A program made the position numbers and the translations under genes. Below are positions 12,004 to 41,991 of a stretch of 61,443 nucleotides of DNA, piece after piece. Source of the stretch: an uncultured Butyrivibrio sp. (GTDB taxonomy: Bacteria > Bacillota > Clostridia > Lachnospirales > Lachnospiraceae); NCBI GenBank assembly GCA_947168335.1, contig CAMVLM010000003.1:1-61443 (forward strand). Direction: 5' to 3'. The notes beneath the pieces are model-generated. The model made no database searches, was not told the origin of the DNA, and worked only from the letters and a program-made list of their open reading frames with translations. Positions within the stretch are counted from its first letter, which is position 1, and each line of letters opens with the position of its first letter.

Positions 12004-13161
12004 TTACTGTTCGCCGATATATTTTGAAACATCAGCAGCAATCTTATCACTATATTCCTGAACACTGGATGAAACCTGATAACTTGTATCATCAAACAGG
12101 AATCCATGAAGCCACTCAACATTGGATGAGAGTGTCATAGGAAGAACACAGCTTCCCTTCTTACCCATGGTGCCGGTTGTACGCATATCCGCCATCGGGA
12201 ATCCATCATTGGCAACTACATTATATTTTGTAACATTCGGCAGATAAACATTTATTATGTCTTCCAGGTCAAGTGAGGTATATGTCTGTCCGAATACACT
12301 GTTTGCAACGCTTACCAGATCAGAAGCACTTGCTGTCTTGGCTTTCTCAAGAATAGCCATAAGCACTGTTCTCTGTCTCTCTGCTCTTCTGAAATCATCT
12401 CCGGCTGTATATCTGATTCTGCAATAAGCAGTTGCCTGAAGACCATCCAGAGTCTGAAGTCCGGGTTCTGTAACCGGTGTATACTTCATGTTCAGCTCTT
12501 TTTCACTGGCCATTGTGGACTGATAGTTGTTAAGGTGAGTAATCTCATTCTCCTCAACATTGATCTCAATTCCGCCAAGCTGATTAACTATCTCGGTAAG
12601 TCCGCCAAATCCAACAGTAATGAAATCGGTGATATCCATATCAAGGTTCATATTGAGCATTGATATTGCCTGTTCAGGGCCACCGGCTGCATAAGCTGCA
12701 TTACACTTATTATATGAATCATTACTGAGATTAAGGTATGTATCACGATAAACTGAAACAAGCTTGATCTCATGTGTTGCATTATTGATTGAAGCTATGA
12801 TGATTGAGTCAGATCTTGTCTTCTTATCAAGCTTACCACCTCTGTCATCAACACCGAACAAAGCGATATTGGTATAGCCTGTCATCTGCTCATTTTCTTC
12901 GACACCACTGTTTACGCTGTTAGATATCTTCTCTTCGTCAAGTTCTACCTTGCCGACTTTATCAACACCAAGTCCGCCAAATAAAAACCAGGCTGCAACT
13001 ATAAGTAATATAAGAAGTACTAATTCAACTCCCAGTACAATAAATGCACGTTTCTTGTCTTTTTTTCTGTTTCCTCTTCTAGAGCCCCCACTTCTACGGC
13101 CACCATTAGCAGGTCTGCCGCCCCTACTGCTCCTAAGCTCGTCGCCATTACGATTCGACAT
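12004..13161 (-). CDS. LytR-CpsA-Psr (LCP) family glycopolymer ligase
   Basis: Membrane-anchored phosphotransferase that attaches polyprenyl-linked glycopolymers to peptidoglycan. The N-terminus is Arg/Gly/Ser-rich and cytoplasmic (1-35), followed by one helix (about 37-62). The LCP domain starts with NIALFGVDDRGG (about 98-109) and has the conserved RSDSIII, VYRDTYL and RRAERQR segments, whose Arg and Asp residues bind the pyrophosphate lipid. It is the last gene of a run of GT2, GT2, sugar transferase and LCP, which fits a ligase acting on the glycan built here. At 385 residues it is of normal length and ends at a good terminator. Confidence 0.94.
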   Translation of the reverse strand: MSNRNGDELRSSRGGRPANGGRRSGGSRRGNRKKDKKRAFIVLGVELVLLILLIVAAWFLFGGLGVDKVGKVELDEEKISNSVNSGVEENEQMTGYTNIALFGVDDRGGKLDKKTRSDSIIIASINNATHEIKLVSVYRDTYLNLSNDSYNKCNAAYAAGGPEQAISMLNMNLDMDITDFITVGFGGLTEIVNQLGGIEINVEENEITHLNNYQSTMASEKELNMKYTPVTEPGLQTLDGLQATAYCRIRYTAGDDFRRAERQRTVLMAILEKAKTASASDLVSVANSVFGQTYTSLDLEDIINVYLPNVTKYNVVANDGFPMADMRTTGTMGKKGSCVLPMTLSSNVEWLHGFLFDDTSYQVSSSVQEYSDKIAADVSKYIGEQ

Positions 13162-13243: not shown

Positions 13244-14653
13244 TTAATATGCGTTCTTATTAACAAAGCCATGGAACAATGTTCCAAACAGAATTCTAAT
13301 ATCAAATTCAAAGGTCCAGTTTTCAATATAGTATATGTCGTATTCTATTCTCTTACGTATAGAAGTATCTCCCCTGTAGCCATTTACCTGAGCCCAGCCC
13401 GTTATACCGGGGCGAACCTGATGCTTGACCATATATCTGGGAATCTCTCCCTTAAATTTCACAACAAACTGAGGTCTCTCAGGTCTGGGGCCAACCAGTG
13501 ACATATCCCCCCAAAGTACGTTAAAGAACTGCGGCATCTCATCAATGCTGTGTTTTCTGAGGAATCGACCGACTTTTGTTACTCTGGGATCATCTTTGGT
13601 AGTCCAGCCCTTCTTCTCAGCGGATTCGGACTGCACTTCCATAGTCCTGAATTTAAACATCATAAAGCTCTTGCCATGAAGGCCAACTCTTTCCTGCTTA
13701 AAGATGATAGGTCCGGGACTGGATAATTTAACCGCAATTGCCGCAAGAAGCATTGCGGGTGAAAACAGAATAATAAGAATAATCGATCCGATAATATCAA
13801 CTATTCTCTTCATAAATGCATTAAATCCATTTGTCAGAGGAACATATCTGATGTTAATAACCGGAAGTCCGAGTATCTCCTCCGTATATGGATTGCTGGG
13901 GAACAGGCTCGTGTAATCCGGAATAAACTTTGTATGAACGCCTGACTCCTCACATATAGCAACAAGTTCTTCCAGCTTGTCATATCGATCCAGAGGAAGA
14001 GTGATTGTAATCTCATCATAACTGTTGTCGGCAAGAAATCTTGTGAGCATATCAATTTCGCCCACAACCTTAACTCCATGATAGCTTGTTCCTATCGGAA
14101 CCATATCATCCAGAATACCGCTTACAACATATCCCCACTGAGGATTGCTGTTGATCCTGCTGATATATCCTTCAGCAGACCTTGAATATCCGATAAGCAG
14201 AATATGTTTTAAATTGTATCCTTTTCTCCTTACATATCTGAGGAATCTGCGGAGAAGCACTCTCGAAAGGCTGGTGAGAACAATATTGATAAAGAAGAAA
14301 TACACTATCATGGATCTTGAAAAGTCTATCTGCTTAACAAGATACAGGACAACGTAGAAACCGATCAGACCAACCAGATTGGCAGAAAAGATATTATACA
14401 GCTCATATCTCATCTTGGTTGCGCGCTGAGGCGTATACAGATTAAACATACTGTACAGCGCAATATATGCGGGCACCAAAACATAGAGGGCAGAAAAATA
14501 TGTCCTCATAGACAAATATCCGACTTCAGGATCTATCTTTGAAAAAGGTGATTCAAATTTAAAATACCAAGCCAGAATATATGCACAGGCTATTAAAATT
14601 CCGTCCCCAACAATATGCAGTCTGTTAAGATTTGTCTGATTATCTTTAATCAT
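13244..14653 (-). CDS. polyprenyl-phosphate sugar-1-phosphate transferase (WcaJ/CpsE type)
   Basis: Initiating enzyme for a lipid-linked glycan: moves a sugar-1-phosphate, often glucose or galactose, from its UDP form to undecaprenyl phosphate. It has several N-terminal helices (within about 12-130), a CoA-binding-like middle domain (about 145-265), a re-entrant helix (about 285-310), and the catalytic C-terminal domain. That domain shows SPGPIIFKQERVG, MFKFRTM, RKHSIDEMPQ, DMSLVGPRPE and GITGWAQVNGYRG. It is full length (469). It is co-directional with two GT2 genes upstream and LCP downstream. A priming transferase suggests a flippase-dependent or lipid-linked pathway alongside the ABC exporter. 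The exact sugar cannot be read from the sequence. Confidence 0.94.
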   Translation of the reverse strand: MIKDNQTNLNRLHIVGDGILIACAYILAWYFKFESPFSKIDPEVGYLSMRTYFSALYVLVPAYIALYSMFNLYTPQRATKMRYELYNIFSANLVGLIGFYVVLYLVKQIDFSRSMIVYFFFINIVLTSLSRVLLRRFLRYVRRKGYNLKHILLIGYSRSAEGYISRINSNPQWGYVVSGILDDMVPIGTSYHGVKVVGEIDMLTRFLADNSYDEITITLPLDRYDKLEELVAICEESGVHTKFIPDYTSLFPSNPYTEEILGLPVINIRYVPLTNGFNAFMKRIVDIIGSIILIILFSPAMLLAAIAVKLSSPGPIIFKQERVGLHGKSFMMFKFRTMEVQSESAEKKGWTTKDDPRVTKVGRFLRKHSIDEMPQFFNVLWGDMSLVGPRPERPQFVVKFKGEIPRYMVKHQVRPGITGWAQVNGYRGDTSIRKRIEYDIYYIENWTFEFDIRILFGTLFHGFVNKNAY

Positions 14654-18989: not shown

Positions 18990-21056
18990 TCAGGCATTTC
19001 TTAAACTGCTGTATCCTTCTACGTTAAGTGAAAAATCACTTCTGTCCAGTGAAAAATTAGGATTGTAGTAAGGATCTCCCTTATCGAGAACTTCTTTCCA
19101 TTTCTCTCTGAAATGTTCAGATTCCTTGTCATATCTTTTAGCATTTTCGCCTTCAAGATCAAGTCCTCTTGAAGCAGACTCATAATGATACATCTCAGCA
19201 AAAGGTGTAAATATGTTCAAATATCCTTTTGCACGTAATTTCAAGCAAAAATCTACGTCATTAAGAGATACTGCAAATCCGGGATCAAATCCCTGTACCT
19301 CATCATATTTTTTTCTGGAAACCATCAGGCAGGCGCCTGTTACAGCAGACATATCCTGCGCATAGCAGAGTCTTCCCATATAACCAAGGTTCATTCCCTC
19401 CTGGCCATAATGGCAGTGTCCGGCTGTCCTGTGTGCTCCAAGTCTTAAAACGATACCGGCATGCTGGATCTTCCTGTTGGGGAAATAAAGCTTACCGCCT
19501 ACAGCTCCCACATCAGCCCTCTGAGCATACATAAGAAGCTCTTCAAGCCAGTTAACTGTGATAACCTGTGTATCGTTATTAAGAAGAAGTACATATTCTC
19601 CGTCAGAATGCTTAACTCCGTAGTTTACAACCGCTGAATAATTGAATGGCGGTCTTGTTCCGTCCGGATTGAGATTTGCAGGATCATCATAATAATTCAC
19701 GATTTTGATCACTGAACCCATTGCGCTGCTTTTCAGCTGATCGTAATAAGCAAATGTCTCTTTGGAAGTGCTTCCATTTTCAACAACTATAATCTCATAA
19801 TTATCGTAAGTTGATTTTTCATATATGGAAGTAAGACAACGCTTTAAGTCCTCCACATGCTCACATGTGGGAATTACTATTGAGATCTTGGGCATTCCCT
19901 CAACCTCGTAGGCAATCTTGAAGATTGTCTCAAAGGCTCTGGTACTGGATATCTTGAAATGCTCATAGCCATGTCTTCTAAGATGATCGGCTACTGCGCC
20001 TCTGGCAGCATCTATGGCGTAGCTCTTGGCACTGATATCAGATGCCACGCTGCCTGCATGGGATCTCCAGTAATATAAAAGCATGGGAACATGAACAATA
20101 TTCTCGGCGTTGTCAGTAAGTCTCAGAATCATATCATGATCCTGGCTGCCATCGAACTCTGATCTGAAAAGTTCGGTACCATCCAAAAGGCTTCTCTTAA
20201 ATACACTGAAATGGCAGATATAATTATTTGCCCTTAAGTTATCAGGTGCATAGTCCGGTTTGAAATGCATGGTGATCATATGATCAATGCTCTTACCGGA
20301 GAAGGTTGCCTCATCACAATAAATGTAATCTGCATTCTTCTCGTTTATCACTTTTACATAGTGATACAAAACTTCAGGATGAAGAATATCATCATGATCA
20401 AGAAGTCCGATAAACTCTCCATCCGCATACTTTAAGCATTCATTGGTGTTTCCTGAAATACCGGTGTTTTTCTCCAGTCTGTGGTAAACAATTCCGGTAT
20501 GCTCAGTCCTTCCCAGCTTGTTTCGCTCATCCTTCTCATACTCTCTGACAATCTGCTCTACATATGCATGATCCTTGTCAGAACCGTCTGCAAGACAGAG
20601 CTGCCAGTTTACATAAGTCTGATTCAGCACAGACTCTATCATGTCTCTGAGGAAATTCTCAGGAGTATTGTAGAGAGGAACCAGGATACTTATAAGAGGC
20701 ATTCTGGGAAATTCTTCCGCTCTTTCTCTCTTTATTCTGTCCTCATCGGGAAAGCTCTCGGTGCCGTAGTGAACCTTGGCCTTCCTCTCAATCTGCTTGT
20801 ACTTTAACTTTGCAATGACTCCGCGAACAGATCCTGCATTCTTAAGTCTGTCCTTCTGTCTGATCACAAAATGCATTGTATTTCTTGCAGGCGTACTGGC
20901 TTTCCATACAGGATTATTCTTGATCCTGTTAAGTTTAAACTCCAGCTCCTGGTTTTTATCCTCAAGATCCGCTACCTTCTGAGCCAGGTCTGCACTTTTT
21001 AGTTTTTCTTTTTCGTATGCTGTTTTATAGTCAAATTCCGTATTATCTGTCATCAT
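18990..21056 (-). CDS. tandem-domain GT2 glycosyltransferase with N-terminal coiled coil
   Basis: A 688-residue protein with two GT-A domains. A coiled coil (about 12-48) is followed by GT2 domain 1 (about 125-340, with ISILVPLYNTPENF, NTGISGNTNE, GLLDHDD, YWRSHAGS). GT2 domain 2 follows (about 395-640, with KISIVIPTCEHVED, VVENGST, LLNNDTQ and the late SLNDVDFCLKLRAKGY). Two active domains can add two different linkages, as in O-antigen and rhamnan polymerising enzymes. It has no membrane helix. The first bases overlap the upstream GT2 gene by four (ATGA). It closes the rfbA-to-GT2 operon that also encodes the ABC exporter, so it probably builds the ABC-exported polymer. Confidence 0.92.
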   Translation of the reverse strand: MMTDNTEFDYKTAYEKEKLKSADLAQKVADLEDKNQELEFKLNRIKNNPVWKASTPARNTMHFVIRQKDRLKNAGSVRGVIAKLKYKQIERKAKVHYGTESFPDEDRIKRERAEEFPRMPLISILVPLYNTPENFLRDMIESVLNQTYVNWQLCLADGSDKDHAYVEQIVREYEKDERNKLGRTEHTGIVYHRLEKNTGISGNTNECLKYADGEFIGLLDHDDILHPEVLYHYVKVINEKNADYIYCDEATFSGKSIDHMITMHFKPDYAPDNLRANNYICHFSVFKRSLLDGTELFRSEFDGSQDHDMILRLTDNAENIVHVPMLLYYWRSHAGSVASDISAKSYAIDAARGAVADHLRRHGYEHFKISSTRAFETIFKIAYEVEGMPKISIVIPTCEHVEDLKRCLTSIYEKSTYDNYEIIVVENGSTSKETFAYYDQLKSSAMGSVIKIVNYYDDPANLNPDGTRPPFNYSAVVNYGVKHSDGEYVLLLNNDTQVITVNWLEELLMYAQRADVGAVGGKLYFPNRKIQHAGIVLRLGAHRTAGHCHYGQEGMNLGYMGRLCYAQDMSAVTGACLMVSRKKYDEVQGFDPGFAVSLNDVDFCLKLRAKGYLNIFTPFAEMYHYESASRGLDLEGENAKRYDKESEHFREKWKEVLDKGDPYYNPNFSLDRSDFSLNVEGYSSLRNA

Positions 21057-23137
21057 TTCACCTTAAGAAGATTTGGCACCCAGTTGATAAGTTTCAGACT
21101 TCCTGTCTGGTCGAGCGCCACCATTCCTATCTGATAATAACCGGGCTGAAGTTTTCCTGTTTCTATTCGAACTTTAAAGCCGGTCATATCCACATCTATC
21201 TGATCCTGAAGTCTGAGTTTTATATCCGGTCTGTACCATGTATAAACCGGCAGGCTGTATACCATTGCAGAAACCGGTCTGGCTCCTTTATCAAGTCTTT
21301 CAACCTGACGAAGCACCAGTCTTCTGTCAAAGAACGCATTGTCAGAACCAATAACAAAACTGTATCCCTTGACGAAATATCCGTCGAGCGCTTCACCATC
21401 GCGGATACCATACATCCAGTTTTCCATGGTTCCGGCATATTCAACTCCAAGGCGCAGGCACGCATCCTGTCTTGCCTCCGGATATCCCTGTTCATGTACT
21501 TTTATCTTGTGATAAGGAAGATCAAGCACAGGCAGAAAATCCTCGCAATGGATTATCGCGCTTATGGTCTCATCATCAGTCAGATATCTGCTGTAGAAGG
21601 GATCCATATTATAAAAGCCCGGATGCCTCTTCATCAGAACATCATATTCATTCGCAAGCCGTTCCATCTTCTTAATATCAAGAGTATCAAGTCCTCTGCT
21701 CAATGACTCATGATGATAAAGACTTATGTGGTTACAGCAGACATTATAATATCCCTTCTGGAAAACGCTGTAACACAGATCGACATCATTGAAAGCAACC
21801 GGCAGTTCCTCGGGGAATCCACCTACCTCATTAAACTTTTCCCTGCTAATCATCAGGCAGGCTCCGGTAGCTCCGATGAGATTGTGTATACCTCTGTTAT
21901 AGCCGAAATAATGTGCCTTCTGATCATGCATCCTCTGCAGCTTATGAACCGGGCCAAGTCTTACATTGGTAATTCCGGCATGCTGTATAAGATCACTGTC
22001 AGGGTACAGGAGCTTTGCTCCAACCACTCCCACATGCCTGAGTTGTGCCTGCGAGAGCATCTCCCTGATCCAGCCATCCTGGATTGCTTCAATGTCATCA
22101 TTCAAAAACAACAGATAATCGCCACCGGATCTGGCTGCTCCCCTGTTGCACATATATGAGAAGTTGAAATCTTCTACTTTATACAGGTAAGTTATGTTTG
22201 TTAAACCATTTATTTTGCTAATGGTATTTATGTATGAACCATATCTTACACGGTTATATGCACTGCTTCCATTATCAACAACTATGATCTCATACTTAAT
22301 GTTTTTCTCATGAGTAGTTGCCACTATGGATTTAAGACACTGCAGAAGAATATCGGGGTGATCCTTCGTGGGAATAATGATACTGACCGTTGCCGGCTTC
22401 ATCAGCATATGTCTTGAATTGTGAAAACTTCTTCCGTAAAAAACATCCGTATCCGGATTTCTGTGGAAAAGGATCTCATCAATATGACCGATGGGGAACT
22501 CTGTTCCTTTCCTTTTACCAAACGCCCTTTCCTCAATGGCAAGCATACAGAAAAGGACATCAGCTGAAAGCATACTTGCTTCCTTGCCAACTGCCTCAGG
22601 GGTATTCTTTTTTACTCCGGAAGTTCCACCCAGCATCCTGAGAGCATTCTCATACTCCTTGGAGGCTGCTTCATAAGTATTTGCTCTGCAGGCAAAGACA
22701 CTTCCTATATAAAACGCATTCAGATAAGTATCAGGTGACCAGTCCGGTTTAAAATACGGATGACCATACTTACCCTTTGAAACCATCTCGTCCTCATCAC
22801 CGTATAAAACATTTATCTCAGGATGAGCCTGAAAATAATTTCTAATGTTTTCTTCAGCATGTCCGGCAAGTTTCCCTTTTGGGCTTACAAAAATCAGAAT
22901 CTTTTCAGCAGTTGCTGTGGGATCAGCTTCTCTCCATACATCCGTGTAGGAAACCACCTCTGTGACAAGCTGAATACGCCCTGTTACTTCATAGGCAGAA
23001 CCGCCTATTACAGTCATAGGACGCTTTTCGCGCTTGTGCTCCCAGATGTTATATGCATTCTTCATGTCATTAACTTTACTCTGGTAAGCCTTTTTTCTTT
23101 TAGTTATAAGAATCTTCTTGGCAACTTCCTTAAGCAT
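21053..23137 (-). CDS. large GT2 glycosyltransferase with degenerate N-terminal domain
   Basis: A 694-residue protein. The N-terminal 230 residues look like a worn GT2-like domain that keeps YGDEDEMV and FKPDWSPD. A complete GT2 domain follows (about 245-500) with VSIIIPTKDHPDIL, VVDNGSS, LFLNDDIE, GVVGAKLLYPD and FNDVDLCYSVFQKGY. The C-terminal 150 residues are beta-rich and unassigned. They could be a carbohydrate-binding or capping module. The start has only a weak site. It lies between the methyltransferase gene and the tandem GT2, with ATGA overlap to the latter. It probably acts on the same polymer. Confidence 0.9.
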   Translation of the reverse strand: MLKEVAKKILITKRKKAYQSKVNDMKNAYNIWEHKREKRPMTVIGGSAYEVTGRIQLVTEVVSYTDVWREADPTATAEKILIFVSPKGKLAGHAEENIRNYFQAHPEINVLYGDEDEMVSKGKYGHPYFKPDWSPDTYLNAFYIGSVFACRANTYEAASKEYENALRMLGGTSGVKKNTPEAVGKEASMLSADVLFCMLAIEERAFGKRKGTEFPIGHIDEILFHRNPDTDVFYGRSFHNSRHMLMKPATVSIIIPTKDHPDILLQCLKSIVATTHEKNIKYEIIVVDNGSSAYNRVRYGSYINTISKINGLTNITYLYKVEDFNFSYMCNRGAARSGGDYLLFLNDDIEAIQDGWIREMLSQAQLRHVGVVGAKLLYPDSDLIQHAGITNVRLGPVHKLQRMHDQKAHYFGYNRGIHNLIGATGACLMISREKFNEVGGFPEELPVAFNDVDLCYSVFQKGYYNVCCNHISLYHHESLSRGLDTLDIKKMERLANEYDVLMKRHPGFYNMDPFYSRYLTDDETISAIIHCEDFLPVLDLPYHKIKVHEQGYPEARQDACLRLGVEYAGTMENWMYGIRDGEALDGYFVKGYSFVIGSDNAFFDRRLVLRQVERLDKGARPVSAMVYSLPVYTWYRPDIKLRLQDQIDVDMTGFKVRIETGKLQPGYYQIGMVALDQTGSLKLINWVPNLLKVK

Positions 23138-23161: not shown

Positions 23162-25288
23162 TTACTTTGAGAAAAACTTTCGCTTGATCTTGCGAAGGAA
23201 TTCCTCTTTCTCCTCCTGGTTATCACTCTCTGCCACACGCAGAGAATCTTCCAATGTGACCGCTGTTTCCTTGGGAATAAGCGTCATCATCATCGTAACC
23301 TTAAGATGATTCTCACGCATTTTCTCTATGGAATCATCATTCACTCCAAATTCAATATTCGGATCATCTGTTCCGAATACCATACTGTCTTCAGAAATCC
23401 ATGAACCATTGGGGTGGATTGTCATATGCATTCCACTCTCCTCAACAGAAATACCATTCCACAGAATCTGTTTCAGAGTCACGATACATGCCCCAAAAGC
23501 AGGATCAATTCTGATATTCTGCACCTGATCGTTACACTCAACATCAACAGTAACAATATTGTGCTCATCATATGAATTATCCGGGAAAATGGAATCATCT
23601 TCACTATATCCATCTCCCTCATCTACATATATCTGTATCTCCTCAGCACTTCTGGCGGTCTCAACCTGGCCCTGAAGTTCCTTGGGAACAATTGCATTTC
23701 TGCCTATCATTTTCCAGAGCTCTACAGTAGACTTACGTCTTCCTGTAACATACTTCTGAAATTCAGCTTCTTCGCTGAGAAGATTTTTAATATCCTCATC
23801 GGAAAGCTCTATCTTGTCATAAAGCTCTTTCACATCAAGCTTCTCACGATTTCTGTCCTCCAGCTTGTAGCTGTAAAGTGCTCTGAAAGCAATTTCCTTT
23901 GCAGGAATACATTTTCCATAAGTCCATTCATAGTCAATTATAGTCCAAATAGGACCGTTAACCAGAATATTAGGGAAAATAAGGTCATAGTCAGTTACAG
24001 GATAATCTGCCCTGTATCCAATTCTGCGCATGTATTCCCTGAAAAGTGCATTGAATGATTCCATATCATCAGACTCAAGACATGCATCAAACAATGCCGT
24101 AAGCGGTATTCCATTTACAAAAGAGAATATCGCACATCTTCCCTTTTCATCAAGCTGACAGTCATTGACTTCAAGATCGCCGCCTCTGTACCTCTCCCTG
24201 AGGCCATAGTAAGCATCCTGCATACCAAATACATGGTCTATTGCAGCTTCTGTAAGAGGGTGCTTTTTGATAATCTTTCTTCCCAGCTTATCAACGACAA
24301 TATCAGTTCTGATCTTAAACTCGTCTGCCCTGTCATTGGAATACTTACAATAAATAGTATCAAAACCAGGTCCCAGAATTACCTCGAAGGAATTTGCAAA
24401 ATCCGGATACATGCCATCATGTATCAGACATTCATAGGCTCTTTTTTCATTGAATAAAAGCAACCTGTCTCTATCGTAATTTCGTACATTATCCTGCAAT
24501 TCTCCGTACTGAGGAAGATAATCATCAGAGTGGAGCGATGTCATAAGCTTGTAATCCGGATAAGGATAATAGAAGTGATAATCTGAAATACCGCACTTTC
24601 TGAAAATCCTTATAAGTCCGTTTCGGGTAAAGGTTCTTGCCACTGCATCCTTGGAGTAACCTTCTATACCTGCGAAATAGCTTCCCAGGTGGTCCTCCTG
24701 TGCTCCTGCAAAATATTTAAGACCCGTTCTGTTTTCAATCGCTATTACGATTCGGCCATCCTTCTTAAGATGCTTTTTCAGCATAAGAAGAAAATTCTCA
24801 TAGGGAGTCTCTGTACCGATATACCCCTGACCGTACTCAAACACACCAATAAGAAAAATAAAATCAAAGTTCTTGGGAAGATCAGGTTCAATATCCCTGA
24901 AATTTCCCACATGAATGGTTACGTTATCGCACTCACTGTTTCTTGTGGCATTGATCTCGCTTCTTCTCCTGGAGAGATCGCAGGCAACAACTTCCCCTGC
25001 CTTCTCAGAAAGCATACCTGTAATAGCGCCACAGCCAGAGCCAACCTCCAGAACCTTCTCATTACCCTTCATGGGGATCCACTCGACAATATTGCTTCTG
25101 AGCTCAGATAAATGATAAAGAATCGGCCAGCTGGCTTTTTTCTCAATTATCTCCGGATACTCTTCCTTTTTATGCTTTCTGACAATATCAAAGATCTCAT
25201 TCTCAACGGCACCATCGCTGTAAAGGTCAAGTCCCGCGTAATGCTTGTAATTCAGTTTTACATTCCCAATATAAACTTCTTCCTGCAT
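23162..25288 (-). CDS. SAM methyltransferase fused to a kinase-like domain (WbdD-like chain terminator candidate)
   Basis: A 708-residue, three-part protein. Part 1 (about 55-240) is a class I SAM methyltransferase with VLEVGSGCG (79-87), an acidic VACDLS motif and FDFIFLIGVFEY. Part 2 (about 300-520) looks like a small-molecule or sugar kinase of the protein-kinase-like fold. It has lysines at about 338-342 (KIIKK), a hinge FSFVNGIPL, a catalytic-loop-like DYDLIFPNIL (433-442) and a DFG-like IIDYEW (450-455). Part 3 (about 550-708) is beta-rich and unassigned. The methyltransferase-kinase order is that of WbdD, which caps E. coli O8/O9a chains with methyl or phosphomethyl groups. The neighbours are Wzt with a glycan-binding tail and Wzm, which matches that system. 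Function here is inferred. Confidence 0.82.
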   Translation of the reverse strand: MQEEVYIGNVKLNYKHYAGLDLYSDGAVENEIFDIVRKHKKEEYPEIIEKKASWPILYHLSELRSNIVEWIPMKGNEKVLEVGSGCGAITGMLSEKAGEVVACDLSRRRSEINATRNSECDNVTIHVGNFRDIEPDLPKNFDFIFLIGVFEYGQGYIGTETPYENFLLMLKKHLKKDGRIVIAIENRTGLKYFAGAQEDHLGSYFAGIEGYSKDAVARTFTRNGLIRIFRKCGISDYHFYYPYPDYKLMTSLHSDDYLPQYGELQDNVRNYDRDRLLLFNEKRAYECLIHDGMYPDFANSFEVILGPGFDTIYCKYSNDRADEFKIRTDIVVDKLGRKIIKKHPLTEAAIDHVFGMQDAYYGLRERYRGGDLEVNDCQLDEKGRCAIFSFVNGIPLTALFDACLESDDMESFNALFREYMRRIGYRADYPVTDYDLIFPNILVNGPIWTIIDYEWTYGKCIPAKEIAFRALYSYKLEDRNREKLDVKELYDKIELSDEDIKNLLSEEAEFQKYVTGRRKSTVELWKMIGRNAIVPKELQGQVETARSAEEIQIYVDEGDGYSEDDSIFPDNSYDEHNIVTVDVECNDQVQNIRIDPAFGACIVTLKQILWNGISVEESGMHMTIHPNGSWISEDSMVFGTDDPNIEFGVNDDSIEKMRENHLKVTMMMTLIPKETAVTLEDSLRVAESDNQEEKEEFLRKIKRKFFSK

Positions 25289-25291
25289 ACC

Positions 25292-26593
25292 CTAGTCCCT
25301 TTTGGCATCTTTTACACTTACTTCAGATTCCATATCATAGTATCCGACAGTATTCTTGTCAGATACAACTGTAATATTGAGTGCATCATAAAGACGATGA
25401 TACACTACAAAGTCGTCCTGCTCAAACCCGGTAACCCCGAAGGAAACAAGATACTCACCGCCTTGCAGCTGCATCTTCTGTCTGAATGTGATTTCTTTCA
25501 CATCACCGGCTTTGACAGGTTCAAGAAACGCTTTTTCCACCATGGAATTGGTTCCTGTAATTTCTATTCCCATAATGTTTTTAAAGGTAAAAGCAAAAAT
25601 CGGAGCGCTAATATCCTTTAAAAACTCAACCTTCATTCTTATTTCAAATTCAGATCCCTTGATTATTGAATTTGTAGTAAGTCCCTTGGAGTCCACTGCA
25701 TAAAATTCAGTGATTCTGGCTCCATTATTACCATACTCCAAAAGGTCTGGATTAGATTCATTTTTTGCTTCAGCCTGATCTACTTTCTTCTCAGCTGCTG
25801 CTCTGATATCCTCATCCTCAAGAAGAGATTTAAAATCACTCTCCGGTAAAGGATACTGTCCTACCAGAACCTGCTTATATATGTCTATCATCTTCTTGGG
25901 AGTACCCTCTCCAAGAATAACACCCTTATTAAGAAGAACAGCTCTGTCACAATATCTGCTTATGGTGGACAGATCGTGGGATACAAAAAGAATTGTCTTC
26001 CCCTGTTCCTTAAACTCCTCAAACTTGTGATAGCACTTTGCCTGGAAGAATACATCTCCTACTGACAAAGCCTCGTCTACTATCAGAATCTCGGGATCTA
26101 TGTTTATGGCAACCGCAAATGCAAGTCGCACAAACATACCGCTGGAGTAGGTTTTTACAGGCTGATAAACGTAATCACCTATATCCGCGAATTCGAGAAT
26201 CGCATCAAGTCTCTTATCAATTTCCTCCTCGGAAAATCCTATCATCATACCATTGAGATAAATGTTATCAATTCCGTTGTACTCCATGTTAAAGCCGGCA
26301 CCAAGTTCCAGCAGGGCTGAAATGTGGCCGTCAACTTCAACGGTTCCCGATGTGGGTGATAAAACTCCTGTTATGATCTTAAGGATTGTTGATTTTCCCG
26401 ATCCGTTTGTTCCGATGATACCGATAGTCTCGCCGCGCTTAACCTCAAGATTCACATGATTAAGAGCAAGATGCTCGGTGTAGCCCTTTCCCTTCATGAG
26501 ACCAAGGGCATCCTTAAGCCTGTCGGAGTTCTTATTATATAGTTTGTACATTTTGGTAAGGTCAGTGACCTTTATAGCAACATCTTTATCCAT
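25292..26593 (-). CDS. wzt: polysaccharide ABC exporter ATPase with C-terminal glycan-binding domain
   Basis: Cytosolic ATPase that powers glycan export through Wzm. The nucleotide-binding domain (1 to about 245) has Walker A GTNGSGKST (61-69), signature YSSGMFVRLA (149-158) and Walker B ILIVDEALSVGD (169-180). After a charged linker (about 250-290), the last 140 residues form a Wzt C-terminal-like beta domain. In E. coli O9a the equivalent domain binds the capped end of the finished chain and gates export. TagH-type teichoic acid ATPases differ in their C-terminus. It lies 21 bases after wzm and 3 bases before the methyltransferase-kinase gene. Confidence 0.93.
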   Translation of the reverse strand: MDKDVAIKVTDLTKMYKLYNKNSDRLKDALGLMKGKGYTEHLALNHVNLEVKRGETIGIIGTNGSGKSTILKIITGVLSPTSGTVEVDGHISALLELGAGFNMEYNGIDNIYLNGMMIGFSEEEIDKRLDAILEFADIGDYVYQPVKTYSSGMFVRLAFAVAINIDPEILIVDEALSVGDVFFQAKCYHKFEEFKEQGKTILFVSHDLSTISRYCDRAVLLNKGVILGEGTPKKMIDIYKQVLVGQYPLPESDFKSLLEDEDIRAAAEKKVDQAEAKNESNPDLLEYGNNGARITEFYAVDSKGLTTNSIIKGSEFEIRMKVEFLKDISAPIFAFTFKNIMGIEITGTNSMVEKAFLEPVKAGDVKEITFRQKMQLQGGEYLVSFGVTGFEQDDFVVYHRLYDALNITVVSDKNTVGYYDMESEVSVKDAKRD

Positions 26594-26614
26594 ATAATTA
26601 CTTTCGTATCTTAA

Positions 26615-27637
26615 TTAAAGAACATCGGCAAAATGGCTCTTAGTTCTCTTGAATATAAGTGAACCCACGCAGAAGATCAGCGCAGTAACAATCCAAAAAT
26701 AGGTACTAGAGTAAAAATGCTCAAAGAACCACTCGTTCCCATAAACCGCATTTCTGTAACCATTTACAACATAGGTCATGGGATTTAATTTTATTATCCA
26801 TTTCAGTCTGTCGGGAAGCATGTTGATATCCCAAAGAATCGGTGTAGCCCATTGTCCAACCTGGAGCACAATTGCAAGAATCTGTGTCAGATCCCTGAAG
26901 AAAACAACAACCGCACAGGTGGTATAGCATATTGACAGTACCAAAACAAACTCACAAATAGCGTAATAAAAAATCTGTAATGTGTAGATTGTGGGATAAT
27001 GCCCATACATAATAGCCACAACCATCATAACGCACGCAAAGAATACGTGTATGAACAGCGCCGCAATAACCTTGATAAGCGGCAGAATACTTATTTTAAA
27101 AAGCACTTTCTTTACAAGATAATTATATTCCAGTAAAGATGTGGTTCCATTCATCAGTGCTTCATTAAAGAAAAACCAGGGAACCAGACCTGTCGTAAGG
27201 AAAAGAACGTAAGGTACGTCAACTCCTCCTGCCACCATCTGGGATCTGGTCTGAAATATAACATCAAATACAAAGAAATACATCAAAACAGTGACCACCG
27301 GCTGCACCAGTGCCCACACAACGCCCATGTAAGAGCCCGCATATCTCTTTTTAAAGTCATTGACCGCCAATCGCCAGATAAGCTTACGGGAGTTAAACAG
27401 CTCTACAGGCAAAACCATAAGCTTGTCATACCATGCAGTCACAAGTATTGCCGATAAAACTATCAAAAGCACAGCACATATTTTTTTCAGAATCTCAGTG
27501 TGCTGATCTGCCAGCGGATTATAATGCAGGACAATGACCAGCATGAGTGCTATGGCTGCGGCATAATAGCATCCCAGTACTCTGCTCTTAGGCAGAGCAC
27601 TGAAAAATGGCACCCTATCTCTGTTATCCTTGGCCAT
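26615..27637 (-). CDS. wzm: polysaccharide ABC exporter permease
   Basis: ABC-2 type membrane subunit partnering Wzt. The usual Wzm/TagG body starts at about residue 85 (RLAVNDFKKRYAGSYMG, then VVWALVQPVVTVLMYFFVF) and has six helices, ending in NPMTYVVNGYRNAVYG and a final helix. An extra N-terminal part of about 80 residues contains two more helices (about 22-38 and 50-66), which makes the protein 340 residues rather than about 260. The ATG overlaps the rfbC stop codon by one base (TAATG), so the two are translationally coupled. This ties dTDP-sugar supply directly to export. Confidence 0.93.
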   Translation of the reverse strand: MAKDNRDRVPFFSALPKSRVLGCYYAAAIALMLVIVLHYNPLADQHTEILKKICAVLLIVLSAILVTAWYDKLMVLPVELFNSRKLIWRLAVNDFKKRYAGSYMGVVWALVQPVVTVLMYFFVFDVIFQTRSQMVAGGVDVPYVLFLTTGLVPWFFFNEALMNGTTSLLEYNYLVKKVLFKISILPLIKVIAALFIHVFFACVMMVVAIMYGHYPTIYTLQIFYYAICEFVLVLSICYTTCAVVVFFRDLTQILAIVLQVGQWATPILWDINMLPDRLKWIIKLNPMTYVVNGYRNAVYGNEWFFEHFYSSTYFWIVTALIFCVGSLIFKRTKSHFADVL

Positions 27638-28203
27638 TACTTAACTCCATGTTCTCTTTTGTAATCTGCAAGTGTTCCCCATTTAGGGTCCTTCTCTGAC
27701 ATGATAAGCTCAGACTCATCACTGTAAGGCCACTCAATTCCGATTTCAGGATCCTTCCAAAGGATACCGCCCTCATCATCGGGATGATAGAAATCAGAAC
27801 ACTTATATGCAAATTCAGCATAATCTGAAAGCACTACGAAACCATGAGCAAATCCCTTGGGAATAAAAAACTGCTTTTTATTCTCAGCTGAAAGTGTTAC
27901 ACCAAACCATTTTCCAAAGGTCTTGGAACCCTCTCTTAAATCAACCGCAACATCAAAGACCTCTCCGCTTACTACACGGACAAGCTTATCCTGAGGAAAG
28001 TTCTTCTGGAAATGGAGACCTCTCAATACACCCTTTTTAGATGCAGACTGGTTATCCTGAACAAACTCCATGTCAATTCCGCATTCAGCAAAATCTCTTT
28101 TGGAGTATGTCTCCATAAAATATCCTCTGCTGTCTCCAAAAACCTGAGGTGTGATAACCTTAAGACCTTCTATTTCACATGTTTCAACTGTAATCTTTCC
28201 CAT
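27637..28203 (-). CDS. rfbC: dTDP-4-dehydrorhamnose 3,5-epimerase
   Basis: Cupin-fold epimerase turning dTDP-4-keto-6-deoxyglucose into dTDP-4-keto-rhamnose. Typical segments are FGDSRGYFMET, FVQDNQSASKKGVLRGLHFQ (with catalytic His) and the later KGFAHGFVVLSD and DPEIGIEWP. At 188 residues it is full length. It is encoded after rfbA and a low-complexity membrane protein and just before wzm. No rfbD (final reductase) is in the window, so whether the end product is dTDP-rhamnose depends on a gene elsewhere. Confidence 0.95.
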   Translation of the reverse strand: MGKITVETCEIEGLKVITPQVFGDSRGYFMETYSKRDFAECGIDMEFVQDNQSASKKGVLRGLHFQKNFPQDKLVRVVSGEVFDVAVDLREGSKTFGKWFGVTLSAENKKQFFIPKGFAHGFVVLSDYAEFAYKCSDFYHPDDEGGILWKDPEIGIEWPYSDESELIMSEKDPKWGTLADYKREHGVK

Positions 28204-28229: not shown

Positions 28230-28967
28230 TTAATTACCTGAAGTTGCAGTGCTGCCTGTTGCTGAACTGTCATCCGAAGATCCGGATGTTGACGCAGCAT
28301 CACCTGTTGTTGTGCCGGTATTGCCATCCGAAGCACTTGACGCGCTGTCGGAAGCCCCCTCTGTTCCTTCGGAAGCTCCGCCTGAAGCACTGTCGGAAGT
28401 GTTTGCATTTTCATCCGATGAGCTGCCTGAAGCATTTCCAGCGCTTTCATCACTACTGCTTGCAGCAGCATTCGATGTGTTTCCATCTTCAGGTTTATCC
28501 TGTGGCTTATCACCATCAGGTTTTTTCATATCGTCATCACCTAAAGCATCCGGTACCTTCATATCTTCTTCATCAGAAGGCGTCTTGCTGTCAGGATAAG
28601 AGTACTCCGTATCAGGAGAATCCATATCATTAAGATCTGTAATATCCGTGCTGTCTTCTTCGGTTGATGCATTGGCAGGTACCGGAACATTGTCCACCAC
28701 TACAACCACAGAAGGTCTCTGTTCGCTTTTATCAAAAAAATCATCAGCGGTCAGAAATCCCTTAAGGTTATCGCCAATTTGCTCACCATAAGCACTGCTT
28801 GTTGACTGTTCCTCTGACTCCGCCACTTCTTCAGTAGTTTCAGTCTGGGATTTGTTGCCCACAAGCTCATCTATCTTATCCTTATTCGCAGCGTATACAA
28901 CCACCACGATCAGAACAACCGTGGTTATAATAGCTGCAATCGAAAGCCGTAAAGCCTTAGAGTCCAT
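28230..28967 (-). CDS. membrane-anchored Ser/Asp/Thr-rich low-complexity protein
   Basis: A 245-residue protein with an N-terminal helix (about 8-26), a modest region (27-100) containing a hydrophobic patch [14 protein letters not shown], and then a disordered tail. The tail is acidic at 100-155 with repeated DD, KP and PD steps, and Ser/Ala/Gly/Thr/Asp-rich from 155 to the end. There is no wall-anchor motif after the tail, so it points outward from the membrane. It overlaps the end of rfbA by 11 bases, with a GAGGT site for its own ATG. The tail resembles wall-spanning or O-glycosylated linkers. A role as scaffold or acceptor for the glycan is possible but not shown. Confidence 0.75.
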
Positions 28968-29826
28968 TTGCTACCTCAACAAGATATTTACCGTAATCAG
29001 TCTTCATAAGAGGCTCGGCAAGCTTAAGAAGCTGTTCCTTTGTAATAAAGCCTCTCTTGTATGCTATCTCCTCGATACATGAAACATAGAGACCCTGTCT
29101 CTTCTGGAATGCACATACGAAATCTGCAGCATCAAGAAGTGAATCATGATTTCCTGTATCAAGCCATGCAAAGCCTCGGCCCATTGTCTCAACACGAAGA
29201 TCGCCTCTTCTGAGGTATTCATTGTTGATACTTGTAATCTCTATCTCGCCTCTGGCTGAAGGCTTAACATTTTTAGCAATCTCAATTACATCATTATCAT
29301 AGAAATAAAGTCCGGGAACTGCATAGTTACTCTTGGGATGCTCGGGCTTTTCTTCGATTGAAAGAGCCTTACCGTTCTCATCAAACTCTACAACGCCGTA
29401 TTCTCTGGGATCGCGAACATAGTAACCGAAAATAGTCGCACCCTTTTCTCTTGAAGAAACTTCCTTAAGGAGCTTACTGAAGCTCTGACCATAGAAAATA
29501 TTGTCTCCGAGAACAAGTGCTACGGAATCACTACCGATAAAATCCGCACCGATAATGAATGCATCCGCAAGTCCTCTGGGCTGCTCCTGAATAGCATATG
29601 AGAATTTCATACCGAGCTGCTCTCCGGTTCCGAAAAGCTCTTCAAAAACAGGAAGATCCCTGGGTGTTGAAATAATAAGCACCTCTCTGATACCCGCAAG
29701 CATAAGAGTTGAAAGCGGATAATAAATCATGGGCTTGTCATAAACAGGCATGATCTGTTTTGATATAGCTCTGGTAAGTGGATAAAGTCTGGTTCCGGAA
29801 CCTCCGGCAAGAATAATTCCTTTCAT
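28957..29826 (-). CDS. rfbA: glucose-1-phosphate thymidylyltransferase
   Basis: Makes dTDP-glucose from glucose-1-phosphate and dTTP. The N-terminal signature is [16 protein letters not shown] (about 3-18), with [12 protein letters not shown], the LGDNIFYG metal segment, [16 protein letters not shown] and [13 protein letters not shown]. At 289 residues it has the normal size. GGAGG lies 8 bases before the ATG and an extended -10 promoter (29860-29868) lies upstream, so it probably opens the operon rfbA, low-complexity protein, rfbC, wzm, wzt, methyltransferase-kinase, GT2, GT2. Its substrate can come from the phosphoglucomutase encoded further along. Confidence 0.96.
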
Positions 29827-30915: not shown

Positions 30916-32004
30916 TCAAAGCTTATCGCTGTACATGCTATCGTAATACTTCTGATAATCTCCACTTGTTACATGCTCCATCCAATCCTCATGAGCAAAG
31001 AACCACTTAATGGTCTTGCGGATTCCTTCGCGGAACATTGTCTCAGGCTCCCAGCCGATCTCAGCTTTGATCTTATCGGGAGCGATGGCATAACGACGGT
31101 CATGTCCCTTTCTGTCCTCAACATAAGTAATGAGGTCGTATGTAAGCTTCTCTTTTCTGGGATCTGAATCGTCAAGAGACTCTCTGAGTACATCAATAAT
31201 AGTCTGTACAATCTCAATATTCTGTTTCTCGTTGTGACCACCGATGTTGTAGGTCTCAAACAGTTTACCCTGCTCCTGAACCATATCGATTGCCTTGGCA
31301 TGATCCTCAACATAAAGCCAGTCACGAACGTTCTTACCATCACCGTAAACAGGAAGTGCCTTTCCCTCAAGTGCATTGTGGATCATAAGAGGAATAAGCT
31401 TCTCCGGGAACTGATAAGGTCCGTAGTTATTTGAGCAGTTTGTAATATTAGCAGGGAACTTATATGTATCCATATAAGCCTTAACAAGCATATCTGAACT
31501 TGCCTTACTTGCTGAGTAAGGGCTGTGAGGATCATAAGGTGTATCCTCATAGAAGTATGCATTGGGATCCTCAGGAAGTGATCCGTATACCTCATCTGTA
31601 CTTACATGAAGGAATTTCTTTCCTTCTTTAAATGAGCCATCGGGAAGCTCCCATGCCTTCTTGGCAGCATTAAGCATTGTTGCTGTACCAAGAACGTTTG
31701 TCTCAACAAAGATTTCAGGGTTGACGATTGATCTGTCAACATGGCTCTCAGCTGCAAAATGAACAACACGATCAATATCATTCTCTTCAAAGATCTTGTT
31801 TATAGCATCTCTGTCGCAGATGTTAGCCTTTACAAATGTGTAGTTGTCTCTGTTCTCAACGTCCAGAAGATTCTCAAGGTTACCTGCATAAGTAAGCGCA
31901 TCAACATTGATGATACGGATCTCGTTATCGTACTTTTTAAACATATAATGTATGTAGTTGGAACCAATAAAACCTGCTCCGCCTGTTACAAGATAAGTTC
32001 TCAT
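30916..32004 (-). CDS. rfbB: dTDP-glucose 4,6-dehydratase
   Basis: Extended SDR enzyme converting dTDP-glucose to dTDP-4-keto-6-deoxyglucose with bound NAD. Visible are the Rossmann loop VTGGAGFIGSNY (about 6-17), HFAAESHVDRSI, the catalytic STDEVYG, the YSASKASSDM segment with Tyr and Lys, and NNYGPYQFPEKLIP. At 362 residues it is of normal length. The ATG at 32004 has GGAGG upstream. The longer frame to 32061 is rejected. It is separated from rfbA and rfbC by the GtrB-like gene and has its own promoter (32045-32073). Its product can feed rhamnose or amino-sugar branches such as the aminotransferase at 51943-53049. Confidence 0.96.
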   Translation of the reverse strand: MRTYLVTGGAGFIGSNYIHYMFKKYDNEIRIINVDALTYAGNLENLLDVENRDNYTFVKANICDRDAINKIFEENDIDRVVHFAAESHVDRSIVNPEIFVETNVLGTATMLNAAKKAWELPDGSFKEGKKFLHVSTDEVYGSLPEDPNAYFYEDTPYDPHSPYSASKASSDMLVKAYMDTYKFPANITNCSNNYGPYQFPEKLIPLMIHNALEGKALPVYGDGKNVRDWLYVEDHAKAIDMVQEQGKLFETYNIGGHNEKQNIEIVQTIIDVLRESLDDSDPRKEKLTYDLITYVEDRKGHDRRYAIAPDKIKAEIGWEPETMFREGIRKTIKWFFAHEDWMEHVTSGDYQKYYDSMYSDKL

Positions 32005-32044
32005 TATAATCCTCCATGAAATAAGAAATAATAACTCATAGTGT

Positions 32045-32073
32045 ATTCTAACCGCTAACAATAATTAATGCAA
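32045..32073 (-). promoter_or_regulatory. promoter of rfbB
   Basis: On the minus strand, TTGCAT (32073-32068), 17-base spacer, TAGAAT (32050-32045). It starts just after the stop codon of the upstream EmrE-like gene. Confidence 0.5.
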
Positions 32074-41857: not shown

Positions 41858-41891
41858 GATAATTGTACTCCATCAGTTGATAATTAACGAC

Positions 41892-41900
41892 AGTATAACA
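41892..41900 (-). promoter_or_regulatory. extended -10 promoter before MBOAT module 2
   Basis: On the minus strand, TGT-TATACT (41900-41892) is an extended -10 motif without a clear -35. It lies just after the terminator of the SGNH lipoprotein gene and about 35 bases before the MBOAT ATG. Confidence 0.4.
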
Positions 41901-41930
41901 AATTCAGAGCCAAATAGATATAAATCGGGC

Positions 41931-41968
41931 AAAAAAATCCTCCAACACCATTTAACCGGCATTGGAGG
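41931..41968 (-). terminator. terminator after the SGNH lipoprotein gene
   Basis: On the minus strand, CCTCCAA and TTGGAGG (41968-41939) form a stem with extra pairing of CGG and a loop, followed by ATTTTTTT. This is a good intrinsic terminator ending the transcript of the gene at 41992. Confidence 0.85.
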
Positions 41969-41991
41969 TGAATAAATCAATTCAGGTAAAA

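What the first reader, a model, noticed from the sequence alone, without database searches (positions are those of the whole stretch)
23162..27637. Gram-positive version of the WbdD/Wzt/Wzm capped-chain export system
A protein with a SAM methyltransferase domain followed by a kinase-like domain is encoded next to an exporter ATPase with a C-terminal glycan-binding domain and its permease. In E. coli O8/O9a this trio sets chain length: WbdD caps the chain end by methylation or phosphorylation plus methylation, and the Wzt tail reads the cap before export. Motifs seen here: VLEVGSGCG, DYDLIFPNIL, IIDYEW, and a 140-residue Wzt tail. A third, beta-rich domain of the methyltransferase protein has no counterpart I recognise. 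Two multi-domain GT2 proteins directly downstream would be the polymerase. If true, this is terminal-cap-dependent export in a bacterium without an outer membrane.
Basis: partly seen in the sequence, partly recalled or inferred. Interest (0 to 1): 0.72.

Follow-up and report, generated by a model that had tools for sequence, protein, structure and literature searches.

The report
Capping enzyme gating Gram-positive sugar export
Next to a sugar-chain exporter in a bacterium that is most likely a Butyrivibrio, a gene encodes a methyltransferase joined to a predicted kinase that would likely cap finished surface-sugar chains with a methyl-phosphate so that the exporter can recognise them, as a likely relative was shown to do in Klebsiella, which would extend this checkpoint to bacteria that likely have no outer membrane.

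Summary
In detail: Wzm, Wzt (with a Wzt_C tail) and a 708-residue methyltransferase + kinase-like + beta protein lie in one tight gene row. The proposed mechanism (cap the chain end, read the cap, export) is well supported by homology; the family is a different one. The closest described enzyme is not E. coli WbdD but the N-terminal half of Klebsiella pneumoniae O7 ORF6, published as a methyltransferase plus Pfam-silent kinase plus Ig-like module that adds terminal methylphosphate to rhamnose. A proteobacterial protein of that layout (Pseudomonas asturiensis) aligns with the window protein over 672 columns (27%, 2e-48), into the third domain, and its GT2-GT2 half with the downstream 688-residue protein (36%, 4e-119). 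So the 'unrecognised' third domain has a counterpart. Kinase residues D435/N440/D452 are identical in 62 of 62 relatives; 72 of 73 Lachnospiraceae genomes matching the protein also carry Wzt_C. New here: the likely single-membrane host, the split of one O7-type chain into separate genes, and a coiled-coil-like stretch on the polymerase instead of the terminator. Cap-dependent export in Gram-positives was already proposed for Geobacillus (WsaE, methyl cap). No chemistry is known here; the O7 sequence itself was not compared.

The parts
23162..25288 (-). Predicted chain terminator, 708 aa: methyltransferase + kinase-like + beta domain + C-terminal helix (helix modelled with low confidence)
   Evidence: ORF; AlphaFold2 mean pLDDT 88, pTM 0.72; 27% over 672 columns with a P. 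asturiensis protein of O7 layout
24389..25288 (-). Methyltransferase domain, residues 1-300 (SAM-site residues Y23, Y58, G83, G85, D104, Y152)
   Evidence: Pfam Methyltransf_12/25/11; profile match to the O7-layout family 5e-72; residues aligned
23684..24391 (-). Kinase-like domain, residues 300-535
   Evidence: Order of strands and helices in the model read as a kinase; WbdD is the top Foldseek match over 560 columns; profile vs PDB sequences: JAK1 5.8e-5
23924..23986 (-). Catalytic-loop and metal-site motif, D435-LIFP-N440 ... I451-D452-Y-E454-W455
   Evidence: D435, N440, I451, D452, E454, W455 in 62 of 62 relatives
23273..23653 (-). Beta-rich domain, residues 546-672, counterpart of the Ig-like module of O7-type terminators
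   Evidence: Ten-residue pLDDT means 83-94 over 551-670; BLASTP match to P. asturiensis runs to residue 652; also present with the separate kinase genes of L095 (1.2e-21) and L096 (8.3e-10)
25292..26593 (-). Wzt, exporter ATPase with carbohydrate-binding tail
   Evidence: ABC_tran + Wzt_C; 37% over 429 columns with E. coli O9-family Wzt, 2e-88
25331..25738 (-). Wzt_C, likely cap-reading domain
   Evidence: Pfam PF14524, only copy found in the genome; best PDB sequence match is 2r5o (7.5e-12), recalled as the O9a Wzt tail
26615..27637 (-). Wzm, exporter permease
   Evidence: Pfam ABC2_membrane 1.1e-13
21053..23137 (-). Glycosyltransferase, GT2, 694 aa
   Evidence: Pfam Glycos_transf_2 1.9e-16; 30% with the GT2-GT2 half of the P. 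asturiensis protein, 3e-45
18990..21056 (-). Likely polymerase: heptad stretch + GT2 + GT2, 688 aa
   Evidence: Two GT2 stretches; 36% over 628 columns with the GT2-GT2 half of the P. asturiensis protein, 4e-119
20904..21035 (-). Short heptad (coiled-coil-like) segment at the N-terminus of the polymerase, residues 8-51
   Evidence: Home-made heptad score 0.64, above all 2400 null windows (max 0.59); a segment above 0.45 in 52 of 53 orthologues
27637..28203 (-). RfbC/RmlC, dTDP-rhamnose pathway
   Evidence: Pfam dTDP_sugar_isom 1.6e-75
28957..29826 (-). RfbA/RmlA-like, dTDP-rhamnose pathway
   Evidence: Pfam NTP_transferase 1.9e-77
30916..32061 (-). RfbB/RmlB-like dehydratase (longest ORF; the true start may lie further in)
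   Evidence: Pfam GDP_Man_Dehyd 8.5e-95
13244..14653 (-). Polyprenyl-phosphate sugar-phosphate transferase, likely chain initiator
   Evidence: Pfam Bac_transf 6.9e-72
12004..13161 (-). LytR-CpsA-Psr protein, likely attaches the exported polymer to the wall
   Evidence: Pfam LytR_cpsA_psr 1.6e-33

Best explanation
The 708-residue protein is most likely a bifunctional chain terminator of the Klebsiella O7 ORF6-N type, predicted to phosphorylate the last sugar of a finished, likely rhamnose-containing chain and then methylate that phosphate, and the Wzt_C tail of the adjacent exporter would read this cap and admit only capped chains for export. Steps: (1) dTDP-rhamnose is made by RmlA, B, C (window) and RmlD (elsewhere in the genome); (2) a polyprenyl-phosphate transferase starts the chain and GT2 enzymes, above all the 688-residue two-GT2 protein, extend it at the inner face of the membrane; (3) the kinase domain (D435, N440, D452) phosphorylates the chain end, which stops growth; (4) the methyltransferase domain methylates the phosphate; (5) the beta domain helps hold the chain; (6) Wzt_C binds the cap, Wzm/Wzt export; (7) an LCP protein attaches the polymer to the wall. 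Shown here: gene order, domains, homology, conserved residues, co-occurrence. Inferred: every catalytic step, the rhamnose in the chain, the identity of the cap, and wall attachment.
For: BLASTP from the methyltransferase into the beta domain (residues 17-652) with a P. asturiensis protein of O7 layout, 27% over 672 columns, 2e-48; that protein carries Y28, Y66, G91, G93, E112, Y158, exactly the residue numbers published for ORF6-O7, and D443 near the published D441. O7 ORF6 was shown to add 3-O-phosphate and then methyl to terminal rhamnose, and D441A abolished the phosphorylation (PMC11231755). Methyltransferase+kinase profile vs the O7-layout family 1.2e-83, kinase alone 2.2e-22. Polymerase half 36%, 4e-119. 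Identical catalytic residues 62/62. 72 of 73 genomes with a match to the protein carry Wzt_C against 22 of 77 without; the match begins within 300 nt downstream of Wzt_C in 58 of 73. Similar gene order rfbB-A-C, Wzm, Wzt, terminator, glycosyltransferases in a C. braakii plasmid. Wzt 37% to O9-family Wzt over its length.
Against: No chemistry of any such glycan is known. The K. pneumoniae O7 sequence itself could not be fetched; the link runs through P. asturiensis and published residue numbers. The kinase fold rests on a model and on a Foldseek match with poor global superposition (TM 0.21 by query length, rmsd 20.9); VIA rows cover only the methyltransferase. Among the 25 of 33 Pfam families shown for 46 members there is no protein-kinase or APH model; one member hits HisKA_2 at 0.0071. 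The beta profile reaches P. asturiensis only at E 0.016 in a set of 261 sequences, and 1 of 121 O7-layout proteins below 1e-3. The terminator lacks the coiled coil that the paper lists for O7 orthologues. The C. braakii relative has Glu at the place of D452 and glycosyltransferases of other families. Of the 73 matching genomes only 35 have a reported match over residue 435, and in 21 the matches end before residue 330, so there the kinase is absent, separate or diverged. L080 has the protein without a recognised Wzt; 22 genomes have Wzt_C without a match.
Confidence: 0.72

Rival explanations
1. Methyl-only or phosphate-only cap: one of the two domains is catalytically silent or acts in binding, and the cap is a plain O-methyl (as in E. 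coli O8, Aquifex or Geobacillus) or a plain phosphate.
For: The O8 enzyme lacks a kinase and methylates sugar hydroxyls (PMC3482155 Discussion); A. aeolicus has methyl caps (PMC9445017 passages), and so does Geobacillus (PMC2943079 passages); in vitro the O7 enzyme methylated only part of its phosphorylated product; some relatives carry methyltransferase and kinase as separate genes (L095, L096, L098), and in 21 of 73 genomes the reported matches end before residue 330.
Against: In the fused form both active sites are conserved: kinase D435/N440/D452 62 of 62, methyltransferase Y58 and Y152 62 of 62, G85 61 of 62. In L095, L096 and L098 the separate genes are neighbours.
Confidence: 0.15
2. 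The enzyme decorates the chain internally, or modifies another surface component, and has no role in termination or export.
For: L080 carries the protein with no recognised Wzm/Wzt nearby; Wzt_C occurs without a match to it in 22 of 77 genomes, so the two can be uncoupled.
Against: Tight coupling with Wzt_C in the other direction (72 of 73 genomes), neighbourhood in 57 of 62 loci, fusion to glycosyltransferases in L084, L085, L088, and homology to the layout of a tested terminator.
Confidence: 0.1
3. True member of the WbdD family, transferred from Gram-negatives.
For: WbdD is the best Foldseek match; same order wzm-wzt-wbdD-polymerase; both proteins happen to have 708 residues.
Against: No BLASTP similarity; kinase profile-profile probability 13.7%; kinase profile reaches 3 of 120 WbdD-family proteins against 90 of 121 of the O7-layout family below 1e-3; His-His and coiled coil missing.
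Confidence: 0.03

Closest known systems
Klebsiella pneumoniae O7 ORF6 (ORF6-O7-N methyltransferase-kinase terminator + ORF6-O7-C GT2-GT2 polymerase), PMC11231755
   Same: Methyltransferase, then a Pfam-silent kinase of about 220-235 residues, then an Ig-like/beta module; SAM-site residues and catalytic Asp correspond through P. asturiensis; a GT2-GT2 polymerase; rhamnose pathway genes and Wzm/Wzt alongside.
   Different: Here the single O7-type chain is split: terminator (708 aa) and polymerase (688 aa) are separate genes with an extra GT2 protein between; no coiled coil was found on the terminator and a short heptad stretch sits on the polymerase; the host is a Lachnospiraceae. The sequence of ORF6-O7 was not compared directly.
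E. coli O9/O9a WbdD-Wzt-Wzm (PMC3482155)
   Same: Same gene order; methyltransferase followed by a kinase-like domain; Wzt with C-terminal binding domain, 37% identical over 429 columns; likely the same logic.
   Different: Kinase not alignable by sequence; no His-His phosphate site; beta domain in place of the 460-708 coiled-coil region; polymerase with GT2 domains rather than Glycos_transf_1 domains.
Geobacillus stearothermophilus S-layer rhamnan, WsaE/Wzm/Wzt (PMC2943079)
   Same: Gram-positive, rhamnose polymer, cap by a methyltransferase, export by Wzm/Wzt predicted to bind the cap.
   Different: WsaE is one protein with a methyltransferase and two glycosyltransferase domains giving a 2-O-methyl cap; no kinase is described in the passages read.
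Aquifex aeolicus and E. coli O8 methyl-cap systems (PMC9445017; E. coli IAI1 locus)
   Same: Cap read by Wzt's C-terminal domain; Wzt of O8 38% identical over 381 columns, ending inside the tail.
   Different: Methyl caps only; the O8 terminator has no kinase.

Membership tests
K. pneumoniae O7 ORF6-N type terminator | N-terminal methyltransferase with the published SAM-site residues (Y28, Y66, G91, G93, E112, Y158) | tested here: met
   Window Y23, Y58, G83, G85, D104 (acidic, D for E), Y152 align with them; P. asturiensis has exactly the published numbers
K. pneumoniae O7 ORF6-N type terminator | Pfam-unannotated kinase domain with catalytic Asp (D441) | tested here: met
   No Pfam match over the domain in the window protein; D435 aligns with P. 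asturiensis D443; profile match to the O7-layout family 2.2e-22
K. pneumoniae O7 ORF6-N type terminator | Ig-like carbohydrate-binding module after the kinase | tested here: met
   BLASTP alignment runs to residue 652, through most of the beta domain; weak by profile, E 0.016; the fold of the domain was not searched on its own
K. pneumoniae O7 ORF6-N type terminator | Coiled coil after the terminator domains | tested here: not met
   No heptad segment after the beta domain in the window protein and in 58 of 59 relatives; found instead at the N-terminus of the polymerase (52 of 53). Home-made score; WbdD O9, WbdD O8, P. asturiensis and C. braakii score positive. So it is filed as a variant, not as a member in the strict sense
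K. pneumoniae O7 ORF6-N type terminator | Transfers phosphate, then methyl, to the terminal sugar | not testable with these tools
   Needs enzyme assay
E. coli O9a WbdD | Methyltransferase followed by a kinase fold | tested here: met
   Model and Foldseek rank 1, by predicted fold only
E. coli O9a WbdD | Sequence homology of the kinase domain | tested here: not met
   BLASTP none; hhalign 13.7%, E 0.002 over 71 columns, although the catalytic loop falls in register
E. coli O9a WbdD | H132, H133 (and R203) in the methyltransferase, needed for phosphate methylation | tested here: not met
   H132/H133 align with E151/Y152; R203 lay outside the alignment and was not tested. This does not exclude phosphate methylation: P. 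asturiensis, of the O7 layout, also has Glu-Tyr there
E. coli O9a WbdD | C-terminal coiled-coil region | tested here: not met
   Beta domain in the model; no heptad segment after residue 516
Cap-dependent Wzm/Wzt exporter | Wzt with fused Wzt_C domain | tested here: met
   PF14524 8.7e-42, score 142.9 bits against a cut-off of 30.4
Cap-dependent Wzm/Wzt exporter | The Wzt tail binds the cap and export depends on it | not testable with these tools
   Needs binding assay and mutants
Geobacillus WsaE-type methyl-cap system | Methyltransferase and two glycosyltransferase domains in one polypeptide | tested here: not met
   Separate genes in the window, although fused forms exist in relatives L084, L085, L088 and L099, L100, L103

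The most novel reading that the evidence does not exclude
A methylphosphate-cap checkpoint is the standard quality control for wall polysaccharide export across much of the Lachnospiraceae, with chain length set not by a long ruler on the terminator, as in E. coli and Klebsiella, but by a short coiled coil moved onto the polymerase; the cap would then be a shared molecular signature of these gut bacteria.
Probability: 0.35. Interest if true: 0.66.

Novelty: new variant of a known kind. Interest (0 to 1): 0.52.

Why it matters
If true, a checkpoint worked out for Gram-negative O antigens also governs wall glycans of a family of gut and rumen bacteria (a match to the protein at 1e-20 in 73 of 150 Lachnospiraceae genomes, one per genus; in 35 of the 73 a match spans the kinase Asp), which gives a defined end group to look for, two point mutants to make, and a natural experiment on the ruler: terminator and polymerase are separate here and the coiled coil has changed sides. 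I found no report of it in the ten literature searches made, whose listings were capped; WbdD together with Firmicutes gave 0 papers, the O7 paper says its orthologues included alpha- and gammaproteobacteria and cyanobacteria, and the word Gram-positive does not occur in it.

Tried and rejected
Rejected: membership in WbdD. Rejected: the beta domain as a second Wzt_C (hhalign probability 0.1%) or as the tail of the 694-aa glycosyltransferase (0.9%). Led nowhere: VIA-align shows only methyltransferase rows; the viral fold library gives mostly methyltransferases, a Megavirus protein first; NCBIfam gives no match over its cut-off among the 25 of 28 rows shown for the 708-aa protein; glucorhamnan literature (listing only) gave nothing on this locus. 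The A. aeolicus Wzt tail did not appear in the PDB sequence search of the window's tail; that is no test of relatedness. Wzt identity does not tell the cap type: 37% to O9, 38% to O8, 37% to C. braakii. Lack of WbdD's His-His was first taken as evidence against phosphate methylation and dropped, because the O7-layout P. asturiensis protein has Glu-Tyr there too.

Caveats on counts: one search scored 7998 candidates and listed 120 of 4346; one search listed 120 of 378; one search listed 120 of 1041. The structure alignment used 46 chosen sequences. Fisher p 1e-21 ignores shared ancestry. Distances: 300 nt 58, 1000 nt 62, 6000 nt 68 of 73; in 2 genomes the match lies upstream of Wzt_C, and 3 have no Wzt_C match on the same contig and strand. 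E-values are for a set of 261 sequences; the separate kinases of L095-L098 were in the kinase profile by construction. The heptad weights are my own, not COILS; threshold 0.39, 0.45; the null reaches 0.59, as high as several positive controls; it also marks 474-516 of the window protein, inside the predicted kinase, and short stretches in folded parts of controls; tails under 28 residues count as negative.
Full report
Observation. Three genes on the - strand, 26615-27637 (Wzm), 25292-26593 (Wzt with a Wzt_C tail at residues 286-421) and 23162-25288 (708 aa), follow each other with gaps of 21 and 3 nt; two GT2 proteins (694 and 688 aa) come next. The genome is most likely a Butyrivibrio: the nearest named record is Butyrivibrio sp. 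SIG341, 97% over the methyltransferase. It has one Wzt_C match and no Omp85 match, while the control search finds Omp85 in 7 of 14 known genomes including E. coli; the assembly is 85.7% complete, so that absence is suggestive only.

Anatomy of the 708-aa protein. In the window protein Pfam sees only the methyltransferase; for 46 relatives no protein-kinase or APH model is among the 25 of 33 families shown, and one member hits HisKA_2 at 0.0071. An AlphaFold2 model from 46 sequences has mean pLDDT 88 and pTM 0.72 with three domains: a methyltransferase to about residue 300, a domain at 300-535 whose strand and helix order I read as a kinase, and a beta-rich domain at about 550-671, then one helix with low confidence. 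Foldseek ranks WbdD entries 1, 2, 6 and 7 among 350,542 PDB chains (4azt: E 1.2e-10, 560 alignment columns, 12% identity), with poor global superposition (TM 0.21 by query length, rmsd 20.9). A kinase-only profile of 29 sequences finds eukaryotic protein kinases best (JAK1 5.8e-5, GCN2 4e-4). The kinase residues K342, D435, N440, D452 and E454 are identical in 62 of 62 relatives, and the methyltransferase residues Y58, G83, Y152, N186 and H200 likewise.

Which family. WbdD and Wzt were read from the E. coli HS O-antigen locus, whose order is wzm-wzt-(708-aa methyltransferase)-wbdA, and the O8 locus from IAI1. Wzt of the window is 37% identical to O9-family Wzt over 429 columns including the tail. 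The 708-aa protein does not align with WbdD by BLASTP, and its kinase profile scores 13.7% probability against the WbdD family (34 sequences), although the catalytic loops fall in register. Distant relatives in the same phylum (398 genomes; regions) led to a second family, here called the O7-layout family: methyltransferase, Pfam-silent domain, then glycosyltransferases in one long chain (L100 1555 residues, P0244 1250, P0251 1260; listed hits 894-2365), with a heptad stretch in the two tested, L099 and L100. Profile-profile comparison with it gives probability 100% (E 1.2e-83) over both domains and 99.5% (2.2e-22) for the kinase alone.

The described enzyme. PMC11231755 (passages, and section 11 part 1) reports that K. 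pneumoniae O7 ORF6 has an N-terminal methyltransferase, an unannotated 223-residue domain that is a kinase (D441A inactive), an Ig-like module, a coiled coil and two GT2 modules, and that it adds 3-O-phosphate and then methyl to the terminal rhamnose. I could not fetch its sequence. A tblastn search of plasmids with the first 545 residues of L100 found 10 records, two of them covering 99% of the query; with the window protein the same two records match over 72% and 41%. The P. asturiensis protein (1457 aa) has Y28, Y66, G91, G93, E112 and Y158, the published residue numbers of ORF6-O7, and D443 near the published D441. The window's 708-aa protein (residues 17-652) aligns with its first 720 residues at 27% over 672 columns, 2e-48, into the beta domain, and the window's 688-aa protein aligns with its second half at 36% over 628 columns, 4e-119. 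The C. braakii plasmid carries rfbB-rfbA-rfbC-rfbD, then, after an IS630-family transposase gene, permease, ATPase with Wzt_C, terminator and glycosyltransferases, close to the window's order; its terminator matches at 27%, 7e-42, but has E464 at the place of D452 and its next two glycosyltransferases are of other families.

Neighbourhood and co-occurrence. In 62 loci the order Wzm-Wzt-terminator is found in 57, and a glycosyltransferase is the next recognised gene downstream in 59. Among 150 Lachnospiraceae genomes, one per genus, 73 match the protein at 1e-20 and 94 have Wzt_C; 72 have both, 1 the match only, 22 Wzt_C only, 55 neither. Of the 73, 35 have a reported match over residue 435 and in 21 the matches end before residue 330. 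Some relatives carry methyltransferase and kinase as neighbouring genes (L095, L096, L098), and others fuse the kinase or the terminator to glycosyltransferases (L097; L084, L085, L088), which independently marks the domain borders and ties the enzyme to polymer synthesis.

What is different. In WbdD, and in the O7 ORF6, a coiled coil lies between the terminator domains and the polymerase or its recruitment site, and for WbdD it sets chain length (PMC11231755 passages). By a home-made heptad score with positive controls the window terminator has no such tail and the 688-aa polymerase has a short heptad stretch at residues 8-51; across relatives 1 of 59 terminators and 52 of 53 polymerases are positive. 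The score is crude: its null reaches 0.59 and it also marks part of the kinase.

Mechanism and rivals. The best reading is an O7-type terminator that phosphorylates and methylates the chain end, read by Wzt_C before export, with an LCP protein attaching the polymer to the wall. RmlA-, RmlB- and RmlC-type genes are in the window and an RmlD match of 8.4e-85 lies on another contig, which favours rhamnose. A methyl-only or phosphate-only cap, and a non-terminating decoration, remain open at lower probability.

Precedent. Cap-dependent Wzm/Wzt export in a Gram-positive was proposed for Geobacillus WsaE with a 2-O-methyl cap (PMC2943079 passages), and the idea of non-reducing-end signals in Gram-positives was discussed for Lactococcus rhamnan (PMC5596347 passages). 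The addition here is the methyltransferase-kinase type in a likely single-membrane clade, with a different division into genes. PMC3482155 was read in outline, Results and Discussion; PMC9445017 in passages; other papers were seen only in search listings.

Noticed in passing
L138 (Citrobacter braakii plasmid pF217-3), 1264-14895: An rfbBACD row followed, after a transposase gene, by permease, ATPase with Wzt_C, terminator and glycosyltransferase genes sits on a plasmid typed as conjugative, so this surface-polymer system may travel between Gram-negative bacteria.
   Followed up: partly
L095 7534-9634, L096 7283-9761, L098 9404-11154: Methyltransferase and kinase are two neighbouring genes; in L095 and L096 the beta domain stays with the kinase.
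   Followed up: yes
L084 5761-9408, L085 3360-7010, L088 9977-13624: Methyltransferase and kinase fused to a GT2 part in one chain of about 1215 residues, without a beta-domain match.
   Followed up: partly
L080 9953-11971: The 672-aa terminator homologue stands without recognised Wzm/Wzt nearby, behind a 340-aa gene that I did not identify.
   Followed up: partly
window 34851-36269 and 40454-43185: Two MBOAT O-acyltransferases (34851-36269, 40454-41857) and a GDSL-like protein (41992-43185) suggest O-acylation of surface polymer.
   Followed up: no
window 28230-28967: A one-helix membrane-type protein with a long Ser/Asp/Gly-rich, likely disordered tail lies between rfbA and rfbC; no Pfam match over its cut-off.
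   Followed up: no
window 37052-38272 and 44273-46048: DUF6077 (6.6e-117) and DUF6044 (1.7e-176) proteins of unknown function in the same polysaccharide region.
   Followed up: no
viral fold library, K7YUZ4 (Megavirus courdo11): Best viral match of the model is a giant-virus methyltransferase-domain protein aligned over 483 columns (E 5.3e-13), longer than a methyltransferase alone.
   Followed up: no
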